DNA of 64,000 nucleotides from Daphnia pulex (Eukaryota; Arthropoda; Branchiopoda; Diplostraca; Daphniidae). Below are positions 27,801 to 63,372 of this stretch, one piece after another (within the stretch, counting starts at the first letter, position 1; the number at the start of each line of letters is the position of its first letter). A program made the translations under genes and the position numbers. The notes beneath the pieces are model-generated. The model searched no databases, was not told the DNA's origin, and saw only the letters and a list, made by a program, of their open reading frames with translations. The stretch spans positions 12,946,974 through 13,010,973 of the forward strand of contig NC_060024.1 of NCBI RefSeq assembly GCF_021134715.1, read 5' to 3'.

Positions 27801-30800
27801 GGGGAGAGTCACAGTTTGGAGACGTACAAAGTTTTGGGATCGGAAAGGAAAGAAAAAAAAAAGTAAACGCGTGGGAGCCGCTCTAGCCCGTCGATGAATA
27901 GTGGCCGGATCGTGCGTGACACTCGAATTATACGGGGAAATAAGAAGGAGCTTGTAGCCGCACAACATGGGCTCCCCTCCGTGATAGAGCGAGTCGAGCA
28001 ACAAATGTTTTATTCAGTTGCGTCACACTCAGCCGCCGCCATTTTCGGACTGGCCGGCCCGGAATGATGATAATAATAATAATAATAATGATTTATTTTG
28101 GTGAATCCAGGCCAACTTGACGCATTTGGGACGCAACGAGTACGTCCCCGGAGTTGGTATGGGCATTGCCAAGTGCCCGTTTGACCCGAGCGACAACTCG
28201 ACGGCCGTGTGGGTCGAGCGCGGCAATCCGGGCGACTTGCCGGCCCTCTATTCCGGCACCAACGCCGAGTTCACCAAAGCCGACGCCGTCATCTTCCGCA
28301 CCGATTTGTACAACTACACGACGGGCCGTCGCGAGTTCACGTTCAAGCGGACATTGAAATACGATTCCAAATGGCTGGACAGTAAGTTTTGCCCATGCGT
28401 TATTCAACGATTTCCTTTTCCCATTTATCTTCTTCTTTTTATATTTCGAAATGCTCAAATGTTTTCTTTTCTTTTGTATTTGATTTATTTATGAAAAAAT
28501 AGAGCCCAACTTTGTGGGATCGTACGACATTGGCGACTACGTCTACTTCTTCTTCCGCGAAACGGCCGTCGAGTACATCAACTGCGGCAAGAACGTCTAC
28601 TCGCGCGTGGCCAGGGTCTGCAAGAAGGACAACGGCGGCAAGAACATTCTCTCACAAAACTGGGCCACCTTCCTCAAAGCTCGACTCAACTGTTCCATCC
28701 CCGGAGAGTTCCCTTTCTATTTCAACGAAATCCGTACGTGATGTGTTTTCTTCTTCTTTTCTTTTGTTTGTTTCTCCTCCTTCTCTTCGTTTCTATTCTC
28801 TAAAACTTCCAAACTAAACAACAAAACAAAAAGACAAAACGGAATTCTATTCTTCCGACTCCCTCGCCCGTCCATTTCGGTTTCCCATACGCACAGGCCC
28901 GAAAGATGGGCGATTTTTTCGGCGATGGTGGGAAGCATTTTTTTGGCTGGCTTGTTTCCATGGAAATGAGGCTGCTAGCTGCTCCAATCGATTGCACCAG
29001 CAATGGCCGGGGCGTGCTAGCTCTAGTGTCTAATATACAAGCTTTTAGACGGGATATTCTTTTCTTTTTGTCCTTCTTCCATGAGAGCCTCGAAGGCATT
29101 TCTTCATTAAGGAGGGAGCGAGAACTGAACTGAACTGAACCGAACTCGTGTTGGAATGCTTTTGAAGAGATCTCCTTCGACCCTCCTTTTCTAATCTCCT
29201 CGGGATTCTTGTTTCCATTTATTTCTTGTCGACTGCTGTTGTTTGAATTTTGTTTTGTTTAATTTTATTTTTATTTTTATTTTTATTTTTTTTAAATTCC
29301 GCAGAGAGCGTTTACAAGGTGCCGGGCGACGACACGCGTTTTTACGCCGTCTTCACGACGTGCCAGAACGGACTGACGGGCTCGGCCATTTGCGTCTTCA
29401 CCACGGCCGACGTCCACACGGCCTTTTTGGGCAAATTCAAGGAGCAGGCCTCGTCCAGCTCGGCCTGGCTCCCCGTTCTCTCGTCCAAAGTGCCCGAGCC
29501 GAGACCGGGCCAGTGCGTCAACGACACTCAGACCCTGCCCGACACGGTCCTCAACTTCATCCGCAATCACCCGCTGATGGACGAGGCCGTTTCGCACGAG
29601 AGCGGCGTGCCCGTCTTCTTCAAGGGCGACGTCGCCTTCTCGTCGCTCGTCGTCGAACGACTCAAAGTCGAGGACCCCGTTGACGTTAAACACTACACAG
29701 TCTACTACGCCGGAACAAGTACGAAATCTTCGCCATCCATCATAAAAAATCGATCGGATCAAACGTTGCGCATCGAATTCCATTTTTGCAAATGTCAACA
29801 TTTGCTTTTCTTTTCTCTGCAGTCGATGGCAAGGTCTACAAAGTGGTTCAGTGGTTCGACAAGACCAGCCAACAGGGTAAATCGGAGCTGTTGGATATCT
29901 TTGAAGTCACATCACCCGAACCCATCCGCATGATGGAAATCTCGCCCAAAGTATGAATTTTCCATCAGTTATTTTGTGTATTTATTTGATTTCATTTTGT
30001 TTTTTCAATATTTTGACAACAGCACAAGTCGATTTACGCCACGTCGGATCACAGGATCCGCCAAGTCAACATGGTCATGTGCAACGGACGCTACGACAAC
30101 TGCCTCCGCTGCGTGCGCGATCCTTACTGCGGCTGGGATAAAGAGTCCAACTCTTGTAAACCATACGCATCTGGGTAATTGAATTTTCCGACAAGGACAC
30201 GGACCGGAATCCGAATCGGTCCCGAAGCATTTGAGACATCCGCTCACGTTTTTTCGTTTCATTTCTCTTGTTCTCTCTTTATAATTGGTGCGCCCACGAC
30301 GAAATCAATCGATAGATTGCTGCAAGACGTCTCGAGTTCTTCGCCCGGCATTTGCGACGCCTGCATCGCCAAGAAACGACTGCTGGTGACGTGGGGCCAG
30401 GCCGTCCATTTGTCTTGCGCCATCAAATTGCCCGAGCCCATGTCCTCAATGCCAGTCACTTGGTATTACTACAGCCGAGAGAAGGGCCAATACCAGCTGT
30501 CCTTCAGGTACATAATTTCATTTGTTCAATTAGTTGATGAGGCCCGGCCGTCTAACGCCCTTGTATTTTTATTTATTTTCTTTTTGCACAGGCCCGACAA
30601 GTACATCCAGACGGCCGAGCAAGGGATGGTGATTATGGGCGTGACGGAACAAGAGGCCGGACGCTACGACTGTCGGTTAGGAGCCGACACGTTGTGCAGT
30701 TACAACATCACGGTCGATACGCAGCGGTGCGCGGCGCCCAGCAAGTCACACGATTACCAGAAGGTCTACTCCGACTGGTGTCACGAATTCGAGAAATACA

Positions 30801-40970: not shown

Positions 40971-43561
40971 TTACTGATCTGAATCCCATCCGACAGGTTC
41001 GCCAAGTTCCTTGTTCTTGGCTATCAGCCACACCTCCAGGGGCTTAAAATATTCACGGAAAGCGCTGGCGTCCATGCGATCTTGTCCCGTGACGGCTCGC
41101 ATCGCTTCTGGCCAAGGTCGGGAAGCTCCCATAGCCAACATCGTTCTTGTATTTTTGAGCAGAAGAGGTAATATTGAGAATCAGTTAGAAGGGAAGAGAA
41201 AAATGTACCCTAATTTGGCTCCTGCTTCTTTGTTCCTGTAGAAGTCGCACTCGTGAAGTGGTTGGGATGGATTGTGCGGATCATATTGTCCGGCTGTCAT
41301 GCACAGGGATTTGTAAAACTGGAACTGGATAACGAAGCTCACAAAATACCTGCACTCAAGGATTTAAAACAAAACTAATTACTAGAACCCTAGTCTTCTT
41401 AATAGAAAATTGCTGAAATTAACACAATACCTAATGTACTCGACGTTGGCTGCAATATGATACTTTGCTCCGGGATCGAAATCATTTTCGGATCTTGTTA
41501 CTGGCGATCTGATGCCTTGGTACTTCTCACTTTATTAAAGAGGAGATTTAAAAGCAATTACAAAAAAAAAATAAAAAAATAAACTAACCGAAGCTTCCAC
41601 CAATGACCATTGTAATCGGTCGATTTAACGGACCCGTCAAACACATCCCAGCGCCACTTGTCCATGATGTACGCAAATGGGAAAAAGGCGATTTTTTCCA
41701 AAGCTGTCGACAATAGGTAATTGATGGTCGCTTCGTGATCTTGGGGTGTTGATTTGTCTAATAATCCGATTTCCTTAAGACTGAAAGAAACGAAGGTTAA
41801 TCATTTATTCGTCTTGGGACAATGGGATCAAACCTTACTGTTTGGTGGTCTGGACAGAGAGGGCTAGAGAATCGCCTACAGCTTCGTGAAAACCTGTCAA
41901 ATAATAAGTTGTATTTTAAAAATTCAAAAATCTATGAAAATGAGAAAATTTACCAGAATTGGCTCCGTCCCTGTAGACTAGCGGAAGATTTTTGTACTGT
42001 AAAAAGTACTGGATGTGTCCCATTTCGTGATGGACGACAATAAAGTCTTCCATGGTGACCTTGGTGCATTGCTTGATCCTGAAATCCTTGCCGTTGCAAA
42101 AGTCCCAAGCAGAAGCGTGACACACCATTTCCTTACCCACCAGTTTCTCGATGATGGATCCGCTCCAAAATTCGGGCGGAGTCGGCAGCAAACCCATCGA
42201 GGTGAAGAATTCTTCCGACATTTCAAACATTTTCTTTGGGGTGTAACCCTAAGTGAAAAACAACGTTTTGTAGCTTTGCTTTCTCTTGAATATTCAACGA
42301 GGACCCTTACTTGCTTCAACATCTCAGGAGTGACATCGATGGAAGTTTTCCCTGGATATGGCGTAACCAAGTCGTCGATATTCCCCCAGGATTGGGCCCA
42401 CATATTGCCCAGAAGATGTGCGGGTATGGGTTGATTTTTGGGGACCTTGTCTTCTCCGTAATGAGCTCGGAGTTTGGCCCGGACGTAGGCGTGAAGTTGA
42501 AGGTAAAACGGTCTGATGGTCTGCCACAGTCCCTCGATATCTTCCTTGAATGTGTCCGACTCGTAATTCCGTAGCCAATAAGCTCCCGTGTCGCTGAAAT
42601 CTGTAAGCAAAAAGTATAAAGCATTGGCGACAATAACAAATAACATTTGAACATATGTACTATTCATTCGAGCGGCTTCGTTGCTGAGTTCGACGAATTT
42701 TTCGTAATGATCCCGCATTTTACCGCCACTCTGTTCGTGCCACTGCTGCCAAACATGTTTCAACTCGTCAAAGTTACGACTTTTGCTCATTTTCTCCGTA
42801 ATTTCTAAAAAATGGCAAAGGGGGAAGTTTTTAATCGCTGTGCTCTACTTACTTAACCTATGTCTAGATACCAGGATCGAGATTCATTCCGCAATCGCCC
42901 GGATTAGTGAAGGAACAGATTTTGGCCGTGCTGTAAATCTTCTCCATGGCGTCAATTGTTTTGCGGTACTAGTGAAACCAAAACGATGACCTCCAATCAA
43001 TAAATAAAATTTGTTTTGAAGAGCCAATTTTACCTGCGTTAGTTTACCCTCTGGGAGGGCAGAAGGGCCCAAAACGGATAAGAGTTTAAATTTGCGTTTC
43101 AAATCGGGGTCAGTGAACGGTTTCCAATTGAAACTGGTGATATTCTTCCAAGCTTCTTTCTCAAAACGAGCGGCAACTAAACTTTGCTCCAACTGCGGCA
43201 TCAATAGAAAAGTATTACGTAAAGTCGGGATTCATTAGCGAAATGAAGAAATACTTTGAGTCGTTCGTTCTCGTCGGTGATGTCCGAAGCGAATCTCCAC
43301 TCCGCAACGTTAGTATTGTAACACATTTCGGAAGATTTTACATTGTGGGCTGACAGGAACTCCCTAGCAAGGGCTTCGTCTTCCACGATTGACCTTTTCG
43401 ACCGTAGCACCGCATACTCACCAGTCCTAGAACAAAAATACCGTCCAACTTAAACTACTCGTTATTAAATCAAAATCGACTTACAGTTGGTCTGTCTTGA
43501 GATCACGGGCATAATTAAAACTGGCACAGCAGCAAATGACGACGAACGCAGTGAAACGCAT
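40971..43561 (-). CDS. Ance: Angiotensin-converting enzyme-like peptidyl-dipeptidase (M2 family), 12 exons
   Basis: Zinc metallopeptidase that removes C-terminal dipeptides from peptides; insect single-domain ACEs are secreted and act in haemolymph, gut or reproductive tract. Minus-strand exons: 43485-43561, 43255-43426, 43034-43192, 42872-42968, 42661-42804, 42311-42600, 41954-42248, 41839-41893, 41589-41780, 41431-41529, 41209-41349 and 40971-41145; 631 aa in frame. Signal peptide [18 protein letters not shown]. Catalytic HEMGH lies at residues 387-391 within [11 protein letters not shown]. The third zinc ligand, Glu415, is in GFHEAVGDS, 24 residues on as usual. Other family blocks: [56 protein letters not shown], and SRPWPEAM near the end. 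There is no C-terminal membrane anchor. All key residues are present, so it should be active. Confidence 0.95.
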
Positions 43562-48470: not shown

Positions 48471-48475
48471 ATTAC
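48471..48475. repeat. Target-site duplication ATTAC, left copy
   Basis: ATTAC immediately precedes the left LTR and recurs immediately after the right LTR at 52650-52654. A 5-bp duplication is the usual footprint of LTR-retroelement integrase. Confidence 0.85.
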
Positions 48476-48762
48476 TGTTGGAAATGGAACTCTTGTTGGC
48501 GGTGTCGACCGTTCAACTTCCAAGATTGAGATAAGAGATGACACCTTTGTTGTTGCTAGTTCGTCCTTATATTTCACACTGCCGTATAATACAGCATTTT
48601 GGTATTTCAATAGTTGGTTTAGGGTTGAGTAGGGTAGGGAACAATAGATTGAATGGGAAGAGAGGGTAAAATCGGGGCCCTCTGTTGAGGTCCCTACAAA
48701 TTACACAGAATTAACAGTAGCAATAATGTCGATCACTGTTGGGATGCAATAAATTCCCAACA
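48476..48762 (-). repeat. LTR (3' LTR in element orientation)
   Basis: 287 bp, TGTTGG...CCAACA, same sequence as 52363-52649 as far as can be read. Target duplication ATTAC flanks its outer edge. Confidence 0.92.
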
Positions 48763-48905
48763 CACTCCCCAGTAGAGCCCGTTCAATTGGCTCGACATCC
48801 TGATCGACTTGATATCCGTTGGATTAGAGATCTGAGAATGCGGTTGAAGAAGGATGGCCGGATGGCCTGGATTACGAGGAGCTGTTTCGTTGACTGGCTA
48901 CGGAT

Positions 48906-50897
48906 TCAGTTAATTGTCCATTCCATTTGATTCCGATTGAGAGTTGGCTGACTCTTTGGAAGTTTGCCACCAGGATCCCATACCGATTGGTGTGTGTTGG
49001 AATCTTCTTCAATGTCCTTTAACACAAGAATATTTTTTAGAAGATGTGAAACGATTTTGTTTGGTACCTGGGTTAACGAATAAGAGAACAGCAACTGGTT
49101 GATGAGATGTTCTTCTATACTTGGTAACCTTGAGATGCGTTTAGGAGCTGGTTTTACTGGCTCCAAGCGCTTCCGTTTCATTGAGTTTTGTTGATTGGCC
49201 AATTCCGGAAGAATTGCTGCTTGACTGCACGGCGATCTGAACTTCGGAATGATTTCTTGGTTGCTTTCTACGTTTGTTGAATTGACAAATGCAGCGGCTT
49301 CTTGAGGATTTTCTTTCGAAGCTTCCTGGATTTCTGGCGACGATGATAAATTTCCAGAAGAAGAGAAGTTGGTTTGTTTAAGTTGACTCGGAAAAGAGTT
49401 AAGTGTTTCCAGCGATGCAGCTGGCCTTCCCGAGGGGAAAAAAAGAAAGGTAGGAATATCCTTTTCTTTGGAGCCGGCTGGCGGAATCCTAATAATTGAA
49501 TCTTTAGTTTTTAGACAATTGAATGTGTCAGGAACTTCTGCTTGATAAGTAGGAGTTTCTTGATGACTAAGAGAGTGAGGAGCTTCTGCCGGATTGGCTG
49601 GAGCTTTTTGAAGATTGAGAGTACCAGGAGCTTCTGCCGGAGTAGCTGGAGCTTCTAGAATAATGAGAGGACGAGGAGCTTCTGCCGGAGTAGCTGGAGC
49701 TTCTTGAATAATGAGTGTGCAAGCAGTTTTTTCGTTGCTAGAGGAGCTCAAGAGATTTTTGGACTCCACTGCATCTACACCATCTAAGTTTGCAAATTTG
49801 AGGTTAGTTGCTTTCAGCTCGTCTTCAAACCTTTTTTCGTCTTTGTTTCCACTGGATTTGACCGGAATATCTGAGATTGATAGCCCTTTTTTTGGTCGTT
49901 GTTGGAGACTGGCTGTTCCAGGCTCCTTTTCCATCGGGACTTCTTTTGACTGGGCTGATTTGACGTTTTGGTCGCTGTAGCAACTTTTCGCGTTCGATGA
50001 TGGGATTTTTTCTGCTCCTTCCAGATTTGCTGAGTTTTCTAACTTTGAAACAAAGGAATTATTTTCTTTTATTTCGTTCCTTTCAAACCTTTTTTTGTCG
50101 GGATATCCGTCTGGCCCATCCGGAGAATCCGAGAGTGAGTCTCCTTTTTTCGGTGGGTGAGGGAGACTGGCCGTTCCAGTCTCTTTTTCTTCCGTCTGGA
50201 TATTTTCTTTTGACTGGTATGAAGGGGTGTTTTGAAAACTACAGCTTGTTGTCGTAAGCGACGACACTTCTAGTGGAGTTGGGTTTGGCACTAATACTGC
50301 TGCAAATTGAGATGTTGAGAGGGTTTTGAGAATTGACTCTATTACTGGATTTGTTTGAGAAGCTGGCTCCTGAGAAGCTGTTGGTGATAAGTTGACATCT
50401 CCTGGAGCGACGGGCACTGAAAAGGCTGTTGAGATGGCTGCGATCACCTGACTGATTATGTCCCGATTGAGTTGTGCTTGGGTTGCTGCCTGGTTTGCTG
50501 CCTGGGTTGCTGCCTGATGTTGGAGAATTTGGAGCATTCTTTCTCTGTCCTTCTCCCATTCTTCGTCATCTGCTTCCTTTTCGAGTTTGTCTAACCATTC
50601 TCTTCGTTTTTTCTTTAAGATGTGAATTTTGGCGACAATAACATCGTCCATTGTTTGGTACATGGTGTCGATGTCTGCATTGATCTCTTCTTGGTCTTCG
50701 CCTTCTTTGTACATTTCAGCCTGGACCCTTTTTGAGAATATCTCATAAGTTTTGTAGAATCCATCTAGCTTTTTTTCTAATTTTTCGACTTCGATAAACG
50801 CTTCCAACGTCATTTCTGTTGATTTGTACGTTTCGACGAGGTTAATGATACGGGTGATATGCTTTTTAATTAAAGTTCTTGCGTAATTTGGAGCCAT
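48906..50897 (-). CDS. Gag-like protein of the non-autonomous LTR element (663 aa)
   Basis: The only long ORF of the retroelement. Residues 1-130 form a charged helical, coiled-coil-like region (IKKHITRIINLVETYKS, then LEAFIEVEKLEKKLDGFY), reminiscent of the N-terminus of BEL/Pao gag proteins. A Gln/Ala run follows (about 128-143). The middle is disordered and repetitive: an ~80-residue unit occurs twice (about 228-312 and 316-390; shared GTASL, PKKG, KRFE), and a 16-residue unit with APATPAEAP occurs four times (about 397-460). No CCHC zinc knuckle, protease or polymerase motif is seen. The frame is intact, which suggests that the protein is or was recently made. The gag assignment is by position and N-terminal resemblance only. 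Confidence 0.7.
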   Translation of the reverse strand: MAPNYARTLIKKHITRIINLVETYKSTEMTLEAFIEVEKLEKKLDGFYKTYEIFSKRVQAEMYKEGEDQEEINADIDTMYQTMDDVIVAKIHILKKKRREWLDKLEKEADDEEWEKDRERMLQILQHQAATQAANQAATQAQLNRDIISQVIAAISTAFSVPVAPGDVNLSPTASQEPASQTNPVIESILKTLSTSQFAAVLVPNPTPLEVSSLTTTSCSFQNTPSYQSKENIQTEEKETGTASLPHPPKKGDSLSDSPDGPDGYPDKKRFERNEIKENNSFVSKLENSANLEGAEKIPSSNAKSCYSDQNVKSAQSKEVPMEKEPGTASLQQRPKKGLSISDIPVKSSGNKDEKRFEDELKATNLKFANLDGVDAVESKNLLSSSSNEKTACTLIIQEAPATPAEAPRPLIILEAPATPAEAPGTLNLQKAPANPAEAPHSLSHQETPTYQAEVPDTFNCLKTKDSIIRIPPAGSKEKDIPTFLFFPSGRPAASLETLNSFPSQLKQTNFSSSGNLSSSPEIQEASKENPQEAAAFVNSTNVESNQEIIPKFRSPCSQAAILPELANQQNSMKRKRLEPVKPAPKRISRLPSIEEHLINQLLFSYSLTQVPNKIVSHLLKNILVLKDIEEDSNTHQSVWDPGGKLPKSQPTLNRNQMEWTIN

Positions 50898-51384
50898 TGT
50901 GAGTTGGAGGTGGCTCCTAAGGAGCTGCTGAGAGTACGAAAAGAAGATAATTAGTTTAAATTAATGTTTTGATTAAGTTGATTAGCCTTTTTGTTTGTTG
51001 TTCTGCTCGGTCTTCGGAGATTCGTGGTGCCGAATTAAATTCTGCTGTCTTTTCCACTTTCTTTGAATTCCTTTATGTGAAGATATCTGCAAAAACTGAA
51101 TGATTTTGGAGCTAGGGTAATTTTCTAGCTCCTTACAATCCCACAAACGGCATAATAACAATTTTTAGGAAAGAGAATTTAAAGAGTTTTTGCCGCAAGA
51201 CGGCGGTTTCTAATTCCCAATTTTGTGCTCAGAGGGCGCTTTGTGCCTTCTCAGAAAAAGAGAAAGATTTCCCTTTAAGCAAACAAAAAATGCAAGAGCG
51301 TAAGAGCGCGAGATTTGTTTCGAAATGGCGGAAGGCCTTTGTAAATAGAGAGAGAGAAAAAAAATTCAAGTTTTAATCACCCTA

Positions 51385-51990
51385 AGGCGCACACGAGGCG
51401 AACGCGTTGAAAGGGTAGAGAATTTTCCCGCGTTTTTTCCAGTTTAAAGGGGAAACCGGCCTAGCCCCCCAAAAAAGAGAATATTTTTCTGTCGTATTTA
51501 GAGAGATCGTTGTGCCTTCTGAGACAGAGAGAGATTTACCCAAATGATTGAATAACAAACAATGCAAATTAATTCAAAAAATGAGAGAGATTTGTTTTCG
51601 GGAAATGGTCTAAGGCCATAGCAAAGAGAGCGATAATTTATTTAAGTCTTTTCACCCTGGGGCTCACACGAGGCGAACTCATTGAAGGGTTAGAGAAGTT
51701 CCCGCGTTTTCCCAATCTAAGAGGTAGGGAAGCAAGCCCCCCCAAAAAAAAATTCTTGAAAGGAAAGAGATTCCCGCGTTATCCCATTTTTAAAGAACGG
51801 GCAGTGAACCCAATCAGCTGAGATTCGTTTTTACAATGCCGGGAGGCGTATCAAGAGATAGAGAGGGAATTTAACCTAAGGCTCACACGAGGTGAACACG
51901 TTAAAGAGGTAGGGAAGTTCCCAAGTTTGCCCAATCTTAGATATTGGAAAGCAATATCCCCCCAAAAAAAAAAATTTGTTGAAAGGGAAG
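51385..51990 (-). repeat. Three diverged repeats in the retroelement leader
   Basis: A module containing CACACGAGG(C/T)GAAC, then a purine-rich stretch ending in a run of C followed by a run of A, occurs three times, starting near 51390, 51664 and 51882. It lies in the untranslated leader between the primer-binding site and the ORF, where packaging or translation signals usually sit. Confidence 0.5.
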
Positions 51991-52345
51991 AGAGAATAAT
52001 CAACTTAGGCGATGATAATTTACGTGACAAAAAAAGAAATCCCCCTTCAAAAATGATTTAGGAATCCTATTTTAATTTTAAGAAACTTTGAGGAAATATT
52101 TTAGCTTTAATTCAAGAGAGAGAAGAAAAATAATTTACTGTTTAGAGGGATCTATTTGCTTACTAGACCCCTGAGAACAAGTTAAACTCAGAGAGAGAGA
52201 AAAAGATTCTAATAAATGACTGACCTGCCATAATTAAACACAATTTTCTTTGATAAATGGCGGCAATGATTAAGCAAAAGGAGATAACGAGAGAAAGATT
52301 TGAGTGTGATAGAGCGAAACTAACTTAACACTGGTTGGAGAAAAC

Positions 52346-52362
52346 TCCGGTTCGAAGGACCA
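52346..52362 (-). other. Primer-binding-site-like sequence of the LTR element
   Basis: TGGTCCTTCGAACCGGA starts directly at the inner edge of the 5' LTR on the minus strand. The leading TGG is what a primer tRNA CCA end would pair with. The TTCGAA string resembles a T-loop but is too close to the end for a normal tRNA 3' terminus, so the primer is not assigned. Confidence 0.55.
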
Positions 52363-52649
52363 TGTTGGAAATGGAACTCTTGTTGGCGGTGTCGACCGTT
52401 CAACTTCCAAGATTGAGATAAGAGATGACACCTTTGTTGTTGCTAGTTCGTCCTTATATTTCACACTGCCGTATAATACAGCATTTTGGTATTTCAATAG
52501 TTGGTTTAGGGTTGAGTAGGGTAGGGAACAATAGATTGAATGGGAAGAGAGGGTAAAATCGGGGCCCTCTGTTGAGGTCCCTACAAATTACACAGAATTA
52601 ACAGTAGCAATAATGTCGATCACTGTTGGGATGCAATAAATTCCCAACA
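52363..52649 (-). repeat. LTR (5' LTR in element orientation)
   Basis: 287 bp and apparently identical to 48476-48762. It should contain the promoter of the element. The right target duplication ATTAC follows at 52650-52654. Confidence 0.92.
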
Positions 52650-52654
52650 ATTAC
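52650..52654. repeat. Target-site duplication ATTAC, right copy
   Basis: Direct repeat of 48471-48475 at the outer edge of the right LTR. Confidence 0.85.
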
Positions 52655-60488: not shown

Positions 60489-63372
60489 TCAGGCACACAC
60501 AAAAGACTTGAGAAAGTAGCGTTCGCAACCTCTTTCGCGAATGCAATCCTTGATATCTTTCCTGCCTACTTTGGGCTCGAAAGAGCAGTGCTCGTTCCCA
60601 TTGTCAGGTTGGCGTACTTTTTCGTGCTCCGTCAATTTGACAATCATCTGATGTTTGGCCTCTTTCATCAGCTCAGCGATCGATTCCGCTTCTCGTCGGC
60701 CGACCTCAACGATCTCGCGGCGCTTTTCCTTCAAGTCTTGGGCGCTCAACGGATGATCTAAAGCCATGATCTCATCCGCATTGATAGTCTGAGGTGTCAG
60801 GTGACGAGTGGAGACTCTCAGGTAGACGCTGTTGGTTTCATGGAGAAGGTAAACGGCCCGACTGACTTTGGCTGCCTGGCTGATTATGCGATGAATCAGC
60901 GGCAGGGCAGGCGATTCGCTGTCCCATCCCGCCTCATGTCGTTGGGTTGCCAATTGCACGCTCCACTCCACCAAATATTGGAAAGCTTCCAGCTCGGGAA
61001 TGACGAGTTCTTTGACGGTTCGCGTTACGATGCGCACGGACGCAATTAAATTCTGCCAGCCGTCGATCATCTGTTGAATGCCATTAAAATTGATCAAGCT
61101 ATCCGGAATTTCGTCCTTGTTTACGTTATTATTTTCTGCCTTCACCGTCGACGAACATGGATTGGACGTAATACGGCGCCGTTCTTTCCAGGTTATTGAA
61201 GCTCCGTCGAGTTGCGTAGCGAAGTCTACAAGCTTTTGAAAGGTGTTTTCGATTTCAAGCGATCGGTTGCGAAAAGTTTCCGACGCCATCGCCAAAGTGT
61301 TGTTGAGTTGGAGAGAAATGAGTTGCGTGATCTCCGGTGAGGGTTCCGTAGGATTTTTCGGATTGCCCAGCAGGGCACGAAGTAAAATGATGGTCGTTTT
61401 GAGGGAATCGGGCAAGGTGAGCGACATTATTTGCAGTTGGGACAGCCAAGATTGATGTTGGACCAACGCACTGTACTGCAAATGGCTTATCCGGTTCAGA
61501 ATATTACGGAAGCTCTCCGGTCCACTCTTATTTGTGCTGTGCTGCTTCTTCGGGTTGAAGGATCGAGTTCGTGTTAGGACAATATCGGGAGTCGAAAAGG
61601 CCAGCAAAATCAGATCGCTCAAAACTGCCGTGCCGGTCGCTGTCGCTGAAAACAGTTGGTCCCACTGAAAATCATCGGGATCGGTCATCACCTTGCGGAA
61701 CGTTTGATAGACTCCAGAAATGTTCATTAACATTTGATCGCCAGTCTCGATGTCACTGTCGCTTACACCAACGGCGCGCTTTCGTCGAAAAGGATCGGTT
61801 TCATCGACTGCGAGCCCGACGGATAAATAATTACAGTCGGGGCAATCTGAGGATTCTACTGCAAAGGATTCTGCTAACTCCGCCTCTCTCGACGACCGAA
61901 TCAAGCGGCGAAAATCGTGGGCAGTTTCCTTTGCAACCAACGTCTCAGTGATTGCGTCTGCTCCTGATTTTTCATCCTTTTCGAAATATTCGAGAATGTC
62001 GTTGACGTTGATGGCTTTGATAATATCCTTCGGGGTTTGACTGACGGTGAAGTCCTGAAGCACCTTCAACTTCCCGTGCAGTGACGTCAAGAAAGTGGTG
62101 ACCTTTTTCATCTTGACTCCGTCGTTAATAGACGCTCCCAAATCCGCCTTAGTCTGGGTCAGGGTGCTGTTGGTCTGTAGTTGTTCAGCCGAAACTCTTT
62201 GGGCCAGTGTTTCGGTCTCTTCGTAGTCTTTCAGCAAAGAATCCAACTCTTTTTGCAGCTTGGTTAAATGCGCTTCAGATAGTTTGACTTCGGCCACAAG
62301 ATCTCGAATTTTGTACTCGGCTGTTTCGGCATCTTCAATTAACGCCAGCACATCCCAACTCAAAACGCAGCACATCACTGAAAAAGAGCGTTTGAAAATT
62401 GTTATGCAGTTACGGAGACGAACTTTGATTATATAAAATTTAAGTAAACATTAGAAATGAGATTTACGTCCAAGAAAATTTTTTTCCTTGGCTTGGCTCT
62501 TCTGTAATTTATGCAAATTATCAAGTACGGCGACTTGTTGATTTTTTGTGTCGTTCAATTTGGAAAGCGACGCGGCGACTTTTACTTTTTCGGTTTCCAT
62601 CTGACGTAATGTTAGCTTCCTGTTGCTGTTTATGCTCTGGCTGTCTATGAATTCCTTTCCAAGACTGAAGGATTTCTCTTCCAGATAGGAAACAAAAGCC
62701 ACGATGATTGGGACAGATTTACGGTACTTTGCAATGTGATTTTCAGCTTCTGTAACTGCCCCTGAAATTGAAATGAGTGAATCGTTGACGAACGGCAAGA
62801 TATCGGAATTATTGTAGCGATCCTGAAAATAGCTGATCATCTGAGATGTACTAAGGCCTTTGAGGTCCGTGGTAACAGCTGCGTCAAAGCTAGACCAATC
62901 GCCATCAGATAAATTATCTTCAAGGGGATCGCCACTGGTGTAGTCTTTGACGCAACGCTGATCTTTCTCATTATTCCGGCAACTGCTGCTGTCATTCATT
63001 TTGAATATATCGACCAATAAATGACTGAAATGCGTCAAGGTTTCGTTGAATGGCCAGCTAACGTCTTTCAACATATTTTTTATTGACGGCCGCTCAAGCT
63101 CGTGATAGTTGAAGTCTTCGTAAAATTCGTCAAATGATTGGTTCGTATCGTCGGTTAGACCTGATTAAACAAAAATAAATGGATAATCGACCGAAAATTG
63201 ACATGAAACTTAAACAAAAATAATTCACAAAAATTAACAAAATTATTGAGATCGTTGTAAATGCAGGCCTACCGTTGTGTAGAATCATTGACAAAATTGC
63301 AAAGGCACACCAAAAAGACAAGTAAAACATTGACCGATTTGGCATTGATTTTTTAACCCGTTGATTTGCCAT
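60489..63372 (-). CDS. Unknown 893-aa secreted or membrane coiled-coil protein, 3 exons
   Basis: Not recognised. Minus-strand exons: 63273-63372, 62468-63160 and 60489-62377, joining in frame. A basic start and hydrophobic stretch (MFYLSFWCAFAILSMIL, residues 15-31) look like a signal peptide or signal anchor. A mostly helical body follows, with coiled-coil-like segments around residues 190-260 and 275-345 (for example LTKLQKELDSLLKDYEE). Further on are several N-glycosylation sequons, a CPDC pair, and an RRKRA furin-like site at about 462-466. The C-terminal end has three cysteines (CIRERGC, then FVCA at the stop). The sequons and furin site support passage through the secretory pathway. TATA-like TATAAAT lies at 63457-63463, about 85 bp upstream of the ATG. 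Probably a lineage-restricted family. Confidence 0.75.

What the first reader, a model, noticed from the sequence alone, without database searches (positions are those of the whole stretch)
48476..52649. Recently active gag-only LTR retrotransposon
Two apparently identical 287-bp LTRs, a clean ATTAC target duplication, a primer-binding-type site and an intact 663-aa ORF show a young insertion, yet no polymerase is encoded. This is a non-autonomous element that keeps a gag-like protein, comparable to the gag-only class known mainly from plants. The retained ORF implies that the protein matters for its own mobilisation or for hijacking a partner element.
Basis: partly seen in the sequence, partly recalled or inferred. 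Interest (0 to 1): 0.7.

Follow-up and report, generated by a model that had tools for sequence, protein, structure and literature searches.

The report
Crustacean jumping gene lacking its polymerase
This is a very young, multiplying retrotransposon that carries no enzymes of its own yet keeps an open protein gene and, probably, a removable intron, so it looks like a specialised parasite of a related, fully equipped element in the same genome.

Summary
In detail: 48476-52649 is a 4.17-kb LTR element on the minus strand, with 287-bp LTRs (0 differences), ATTAC duplications, a tRNA-Tyr primer site and a 663-aa ORF. At least 36 full-length copies, this one included, lie in the assembly. All 36 ORFs are open and all 36 copies are too short for pol: an active non-autonomous family, not one truncated copy.

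"Gag-only" is half right. Only residues 7-152 match BEL/Pao Gag (its N-terminus); the capsid domain is missing. Two copies of a pol spacer and a C-terminal domain found only in this lineage follow. The closest enzyme-bearing relative is a young BEL family (2,078-2,098-aa ORF) sharing primer site, polypurine block, faint LTR homology and a leader hairpin.

Against an older subfamily the frame is kept (12 of 14 ORF indels are multiples of three, 5 of 25 in the leader). Residue-level purifying selection was not significant, and one relative with identical LTRs has a broken ORF.

Unexpectedly, one copy lacks exactly a GT...AG stretch of 1,229 nt, as if copied from spliced RNA; that stretch holds all five upstream ATGs.

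Likely mechanism: enzymes borrowed from BEL; the protein acts as an assembly adaptor (inferred).

The parts
48471..48475 (.). target-site duplication ATTAC (left)
   Evidence: 5-bp duplications in 14 of 15 copies examined
48476..48762 (-). 3' LTR, 287 bp, TGTTGG...CCAACA
   Evidence: 100% identical to the other LTR; 40 LTRs (20 pairs) at 99-100% identity
48763..48799 (-). polypurine-type block (..GATGTCGAGCC..ACGGGCTCT..GGGGAGTG) shared with the autonomous BEL relative, 82% of 38 aligned positions
   Evidence: 38 exact matches to the PPT/LTR junction pattern in the genome
48906..50897 (-). ORF, 663 aa
   Evidence: 36 of 36 full-length copies open
50442..50879 (-). residues 7-152: match to the N-terminus of BEL Gag upstream of DUF1759 (31% identity, E 3e-16 against six pieces of the relative)
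   Evidence: genome-wide 37-38%, E 4e-21 to 5e-18 over residues 6-182
49992..50375 (-). residues 175-302: first copy of the autonomous element's pol spacer upstream of RT (37%)
49755..50024 (-). residues 292-381: second copy of that pol spacer (43%)
   Evidence: internal duplication D6
49578..49715 (-). 48-bp tandem repeat coding (EAPATPAEAP...)-type units, 2.9 copies
48963..49190 (-). residues 570-645: conserved C-terminal domain (KRKRLEP...VWDPGGK), found only in this lineage and in a far relative at C3:5505485 (46%)
51096..52324 (-). probable intron of 1,229 nt, GTTAGT...TTCAG, holding all 5 upstream ATGs of the leader
   Evidence: missing exactly in copy L055; ATG count; 0.19% of possible leader deletions of 200 nt or more are GT..AG
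51108..51132 (-). hairpin GGAGCTAG/CTAGCTCC near the 3' splice site, counterpart in the autonomous relative
   Evidence: z -2.7 and -3.1
51377..51922 (-). three diverged leader repeats (51377-51428, 51652-51703, 51871-51922)
   Evidence: family D3; its CTCGTGTG motif occurs in the older relatives' leaders, not in the autonomous leader
52345..52362 (-). primer-binding site TGGTCCTTCGAACCGGAG (tRNA-Tyr)
52363..52649 (-). 5' LTR, 287 bp, TATA-like ATATAAG at LTR position 191
52650..52654 (.). target-site duplication ATTAC (right)

Best explanation
It is a copy of a young, multi-copy, non-autonomous LTR retrotransposon of the BEL/Pao lineage. Shown: structure, copy number, youth, absence of room for pol in every full-length copy found, and a reading frame kept between two subfamilies. 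Strongly suggested: an intron in the 5' leader that is sometimes removed before reverse transcription. Inferred: (1) transcription starts in the LTR. (2) Unspliced RNA, with five upstream ATGs, serves as the genome; spliced RNA, with none, is translated. (3) Reverse transcriptase, RNase H, integrase and capsid come from an autonomous BEL element, most likely the 2,078-2,098-aa family that shares primer tRNA, polypurine block and leader hairpin. (4) The element's own protein keeps Gag's N-terminal region as a docking or oligomerisation part and carries its own C-terminal domain (basic KRKR..PAPKR stretch, WDPGGK motif). It acts as an adaptor that brings its own RNA into the partner's particles or its DNA to the nucleus, favouring the RNA it was made from. 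Preference for its own RNA would explain why broken ORFs are rare.
For: 36 of 36 PBS-to-PPT pairs are 2.36-3.60 kb apart, and 36 of 36 full-length ORFs are open. LTR pairs differ at 0 positions in 15 of 15 read. ORFs of 30 copies (window's own included) differ by 0-3 nt from the window, in at least two LTR/UTR groups. Gag N-terminus and pol spacer match the autonomous BEL, with DUF1759, RT, Peptidase_A17 and integrase domains in that relative only. Both families share the first 13 nt of the primer site including the mismatch to tRNA-Tyr. LTR global score z = 6.2 against the relative (single-base shuffles). Frame kept, window against L064: 12 of 14 ORF indels are multiples of 3 against 5 of 25 in the leader, p = 1.2e-4; about 20 stop hits expected without constraint, none in the two open ORFs. 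C-terminal domain conserved in a far relative. Exact GT..AG loss in copy L055, with identical LTRs and a CTCTT duplication.
Against: dN/dS (0.68) lies within the neutral simulation that only forbids stops (26-64 of 300 simulations as low, by transition share; 59-115 for the L063 value). L065 has identical LTRs but a shifted frame, so the protein may be supplied in trans, or the frame broke after insertion. The frame-keeping contrast is weaker against the older, broken L066 (7 of 10 ORF indels, 6 of 17 leader indels). No copy or autonomous element was found to share the LTR closely, so the partner is not proven. The splice inference rests on one copy, and its acceptor has a poor pyrimidine tract. 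No structure, RNA or protein data; helical periodicity of residues 1-125 was not above shuffles.
Confidence: 0.55

Rival explanations
1. A plain deletion derivative: the ORF is a passive remnant, and the element moves wholly by enzymes and Gag of a partner in trans.
For: dN/dS not distinguishable from neutral once stops are barred. ORF and leader diverge equally (79.7% and 78.6% identity to L064). L065 has a broken ORF but identical LTRs and a 5-bp duplication.
Against: Frame-keeping indels 12/14 against 5/25. No stops in two open lineages where about 20 are expected. The C-terminal domain has no match in the autonomous relative and is kept in a far relative. 36 of 36 ORFs are open, although these copies are too young to inform much.
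Confidence: 0.25
2. The protein is a restrictor or competitor of the autonomous BEL element: a Gag fragment that lowers partner assembly, analogous in effect to the Ty1 p22/p18 Gag fragment (recalled).
For: It keeps the Gag N-terminus without the capsid domain. Among exact primer-site junctions its lineage outnumbers the autonomous family, 40 to 19.
Against: Restricting the likely enzyme source would limit its own spread. The lineage-specific C-terminus is not explained. No functional data.
Confidence: 0.1
3. The true partner is another BEL family with a tRNA-Tyr primer site, or one now decayed or absent from this assembly.
For: 23 of 82 exact junctions belong to neither group, and I read only 7 of those 23. 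C10:8528405 has a PPT/LTR junction 2 mismatches from this element's, 2.6 kb after a Peptidase_A17 hit with a stop; two more near-matches, C10:9289799 and C9:4833479, were not followed.
Against: In the search with the whole ORF, the enzyme-bearing matches are the 2,078-2,098-aa family and close kin (67 of 126 candidates scored). Of the 7 other LTRs read, the two that resemble that family's score z 5.5 and 4.1, the other five (two of them near-identical to each other) 2.6 or less.
Confidence: 0.3
4. The 1,229-nt gap in copy L055 is an ordinary deletion or template switch, not splicing.
For: Only one place in the genome carries the joined sequence, and the reversed control pattern also had one match. 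Weak acceptor tract; donor one of eleven among 49 GT sites with 6 or more of 9 consensus matches. Another copy, L046, has a 193-nt leader gap that is not GT..AG, so plain deletions occur.
Against: The gap is exactly GT..AG with no ambiguity, a 0.19% chance among leader deletions of 200 nt or more. It removes all five upstream ATGs and leaves none in 236 nt. A block around the acceptor is conserved even in the autonomous relative.
Confidence: 0.15

Closest known systems
BEL/Pao LTR retrotransposons of Daphnia pulex (Rho et al. 2010, PMC2996953; abstract and passages read)
   Same: BEL-type Gag N-terminus; LTR ends TGT...ACA and short target duplications as in most elements of that survey, which reports 66 intact BEL elements in 26 families
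   Different: That survey counted only elements encoding gag and pol domains; the words nonautonomous and non-autonomous do not occur in its held text. This element lacks all enzymes.
TR-GAG elements of plants (passages read in PMC8704663 and PMC9784723)
   Same: two LTRs and one ORF, no pol, with a possible autonomous donor in the same genome; one Arabidopsis TR-GAG was seen to transpose
   Different: TR-GAGs are described as encoding a GAG protein; this protein has only Gag's N-terminus, a pol spacer and a new C-terminus. Superfamily is BEL/Pao, whereas the Arabidopsis case is copia. Leader GT-AG stretch.
BARE-2 / BARE-1 (named in a passage of PMC8704663; details recalled)
   Same: non-autonomous partner relying on a related autonomous element
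   Different: BARE-2 has a defective gag and keeps pol (recalled); here pol is lost
Drosophila HeT-A (recalled)
   Same: an element keeping only a Gag-type ORF and borrowing reverse transcriptase
   Different: non-LTR telomeric element; unrelated machinery

Membership tests
BEL/Pao superfamily (as a lineage) | LTRs with TG..CA ends and 5-bp target duplication | tested here: met
   (14 of 15 copies read); not specific to BEL/Pao
BEL/Pao superfamily (as a lineage) | Gag homologous to BEL Gag | tested here: inconclusive
   only the N-terminus, residues 7-152, E 3e-16; DUF1759 absent
BEL/Pao superfamily (as a lineage) | PR-RT-RH-IN with Peptidase_A17 (BEL/Pao hallmark, recalled) | tested here: not met
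   no room in 36 of 36 copies; present in the relative. Hence filed as a derivative of the lineage, not an autonomous member
TR-GAG | two LTRs flanking a single ORF, no pol | tested here: met
TR-GAG | ORF encodes a GAG protein with its GAG domain | tested here: not met
   no Gag domain in Pfam for the window ORF or two relatives; only the N-terminal region matches
TR-GAG | direct observation of transposition (seen for one plant member) | not testable with these tools
   youth of copies is indirect
LARD/TRIM (definitions recalled) | no coding capacity | tested here: not met
   663-aa ORF, open in 36 of 36 full-length copies

The most novel reading that the evidence does not exclude
A long-lived lineage of satellite LTR elements in an animal that has replaced the capsid and enzyme parts of a BEL element by its own adaptor protein (borrowed Gag docking end, duplicated pol spacer, private C-terminal domain). 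It uses a leader intron to switch between genome RNA and protein-making RNA, and it spreads faster than the autonomous element it exploits.
Probability: 0.3. Interest if true: 0.7.

Novelty: new variant of a known kind. Interest (0 to 1): 0.5.

Why it matters
Why enzyme-less retroelements keep a protein is an open question. This genome holds intact copies in at least two near-identical groups, older subfamilies, a far relative with the same C-terminal domain and a young candidate partner, so the question could be tested. If the leader intron is real, it would be a splice switch in a non-autonomous BEL-type element. My seven answered library searches (listings and a few passages only) turned up no account of such an element, which is not proof that none exists.

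Tried and rejected
Pfam on the ORF and two relatives gave nothing above cut-offs, and a PDB sequence search gave nothing. Structure prediction was asked for twelve times and never ran because the queue was full. ARAGORN in bacterial mode reported no tRNA-Tyr in the three loci given, so the intron-bearing gene was read directly; two of those three genes look damaged. A first per-copy comparison used wrong strands for half the loci and was redone (replaced by 46). dN/dS as proof of selection was rejected after simulation. Hydrophobic periodicity of residues 1-125 was not significant, so no coiled coil is claimed. C-terminus against the autonomous relative: no match. L063 was misplaced in the leader alignment (wrong slice); its correct block was read.

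Limits of counts: the genome search scored only part of its candidates (40 of 88 LTR, 67 of 126 ORF, 150 of 229 A17), so copy numbers are lower bounds. The A17 list used was a typed copy of the stronger rows, without the weakest ones and with one mistyped extra entry; the pol-free statement therefore rests, which pairs exact junctions only. LTR pairs were read for 15 of at least 36 copies plus L055, ORF DNA for 30 of 36 (the window's own counted in both).
Full report
1. What is there. The window lies at G000:C8:12946974-13010973 of a 133.19-Mb assembly in 13 contigs. Size and BEL content suggest Daphnia pulex, but the species is my inference and was not shown. The element is as described: LTRs 287/287 identical, ATTAC on both sides, one 663-aa ORF on the minus strand. 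In element order: 5' LTR 52649-52363, primer site 52362-52345, leader of 1,465 nt, ORF 50897-48906, polypurine-type block, 3' LTR 48762-48476.

2. Primer. The site begins TGGTCCTTCGA, complementary to the last 11 nt of tRNA-Tyr with CCA. The intron-bearing tRNA-Tyr gene read in L072 and all 31 matches to a 3'-end pattern end ..CCGGCTCGAAGGA; the tRNA name rests on the recalled 5' sequence used as a pattern (37 matches), since ARAGORN did not report the gene. Base 12 is a mismatch that the autonomous relative shares.

3. Copies (the window's own counted). An LTR search returned 40 LTRs (20 pairs) at 99-100% identity (40 of 88 candidates scored). An ORF search returned 36 full-length open ORFs (67 of 126 candidates scored). 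Pairing exact primer-site junctions with exact PPT/LTR junctions gave 36 pairs, all 2.36-3.60 kb apart, so none has room for pol. The two unpaired exact 3' junctions are an older copy (C9) and a part-copy in a tandem chain on C11. Six further 3' junctions had 1-2 mismatches; two belong to the C2 relatives, one lies at the outer end of the C10:3549165 copy, and three (C10:9289799, C9:4833479, C10:8528405) were not followed. Of 15 copies whose two LTRs I read, 15 had 0 differences and 14 a perfect 5-bp duplication; the exception is that C11 chain. Over the ORF, 30 copies differ from the window by 0-3 nt and fall into at least two groups by LTR and 3' UTR. Four further copies share a shorter ORF (open frame 676 instead of 684). 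So at least two or three lineages have multiplied very recently.

4. The protein. Residues 7-152 match the N-terminus of Gag of an autonomous BEL element (31%, E 3e-16 in a small comparison; 37-38% with E 4e-21 to 5e-18 genome-wide). Residues 175-302 and 292-381 both match one spacer of its pol region upstream of RT (37% and 43%). The relative's DUF1759, Peptidase_A17, RT and integrase zinc-binding domains pass their cut-offs (rve below its cut-off) and have no counterpart in the ORF; zinc knuckles, seen by eye in the relative, are also absent. The C-terminal 167 residues match only this lineage (43 matches, 47 of 47 candidates scored), including one far relative at C3:5505485. That stretch lies 2.7 kb after a tRNA-Tyr primer junction and has its own proline/serine-rich repeats and the same WDPGGK motif (46%); I read only 1,261 nt of it, so that it is a third pol-free family is likely, not shown. 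The ORF is thus a patchwork, not a truncated Gag.

5. Is the ORF kept? Four older relatives have the same layout without pol. L063, L064 and L065 have identical LTRs (the single BLAST mismatch in L063 lies just outside the LTR) and 5-bp duplications; L066 has 93% LTR identity, no clear duplication and a broken ORF; L065 has a shifted frame; L063 and L064 are open. Indels that are multiples of three, ORF against leader: L064 12 of 14 and 5 of 25 (p = 1.2e-4); L063 12 of 14 and 4 of 25; L065 13 of 16 and 5 of 28; L066 7 of 10 and 6 of 17; L063-L065 are close kin, so these are not independent. Under unconstrained change about 20 stop hits are expected and the window and L064 ORFs have none. NG86 dN/dS is 0.68 (bootstrap 0.53-0.90), but simulated neutral ORFs that merely avoid stops average 0.76-0.81, and 26-64 of 300 are as low. 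Third positions differ slightly more than first and second (window-L064: p = 0.037 overall, 0.034 N-terminus, 0.16 C-terminus; against the far relative 0.014 for the window and 0.13 for L064). My reading: the open frame is selected, while residue-level constraint is weak or unproven.

6. The partner. The enzyme-bearing matches to the ORF belong to a BEL family with ORFs of 2,078-2,098 aa and close kin. The copy at C5:483897-492579 has identical 290-bp LTRs and a CCTTT duplication. It shares with our element the first 13 nt of the primer site, a polypurine block (82% of 38), a leader block (74% of 77) with a hairpin, and weak but in-register LTR similarity (z 6.2 against single-base shuffles). 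Of seven other Tyr-primed LTRs read, two that resemble this family's score 5.5 and 4.1, and five score 2.6 or less, two of these being near-identical. Of 82 exact primer-site junctions, 40 belong to the gag-only lineage, 19 to this family and 23 to neither. The pairing is the best candidate, not proven.

7. Probable intron. One copy, L055 (C4), has a 236-nt leader. What is missing is exactly leader positions 39-1267, beginning GTTAGT and ending TTCAG, with no ambiguity; its LTRs are identical and CTCTT flanks it. Of all possible leader deletions of 200 nt or more, 0.19% are GT..AG. The missing part holds all five upstream ATGs and the 236-nt leader has none (3.6% of shuffles have none); in L063-L066 no ATG lies after the hairpin. 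A genome search for the joined sequence with up to 2 mismatches found only this copy; the reversed control pattern also had one match. Another copy, L046, has a 193-nt gap that is not GT..AG. The acceptor's pyrimidine tract is poor and the donor is one of several fair ones, so I put splicing at about 85%.

8. Mechanism and rivals. The model is given in Best explanation: unspliced RNA as genome, spliced RNA as message, borrowed enzymes and capsid, own adaptor protein. Steps after transcription are inferred. The chief rival is a passive remnant moved wholly in trans; L065 and the dN/dS result speak for it, frame conservation and the private C-terminal domain against it.

9. Known kinds. Plant TR-GAGs are the nearest in design (passages of PMC8704663 and PMC9784723), but they are described as encoding a GAG protein. 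A 2010 survey of D. pulex LTR elements counted only elements with gag and pol domains (PMC2996953, abstract and passages). The listings showed nothing on a BEL-type element of this build.

Noticed in passing
G000:C2:10994201-10997482 and C2:11188201-11191482: Two copies of a gag-only relative lie exactly 194,000 bases apart at every landmark seen; a large recent duplication or an assembly effect. Only the first was read.
   Followed up: no
G000:C10:9823423-9880994: Array of tRNA-Tyr-type genes mostly at steps of about 1.42 kb, with tRNA-Leu, -Pro, -Arg and -Gln genes in the loci read.
   Followed up: no
L061:1143-1928: The autonomous BEL relative has a 261-codon open frame (GTG start) in its leader, rich in P, E, S and A repeats, upstream of gag.
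   Followed up: no
G000:C10:8528405: A PPT/LTR junction two mismatches from this element's, 2.6 kb after a Peptidase_A17 hit whose frame holds a stop: perhaps a decayed autonomous element with a similar LTR; the letters could not be fetched.
   Followed up: partly
G000:C11:335506-340596: LTR-inside-LTR-inside-LTR chain: a part-copy followed by a full copy sharing an LTR.
   Followed up: partly
window 29247-29930 (+) and 41981-42844 (-): Host gene pieces: a Sema domain and an angiotensin-converting-enzyme (Peptidase_M2) domain.
   Followed up: no
window 60489-63164 (-): Two long adjoining open frames (653 and 237 codons) with no Pfam match at E 0.001.
   Followed up: no
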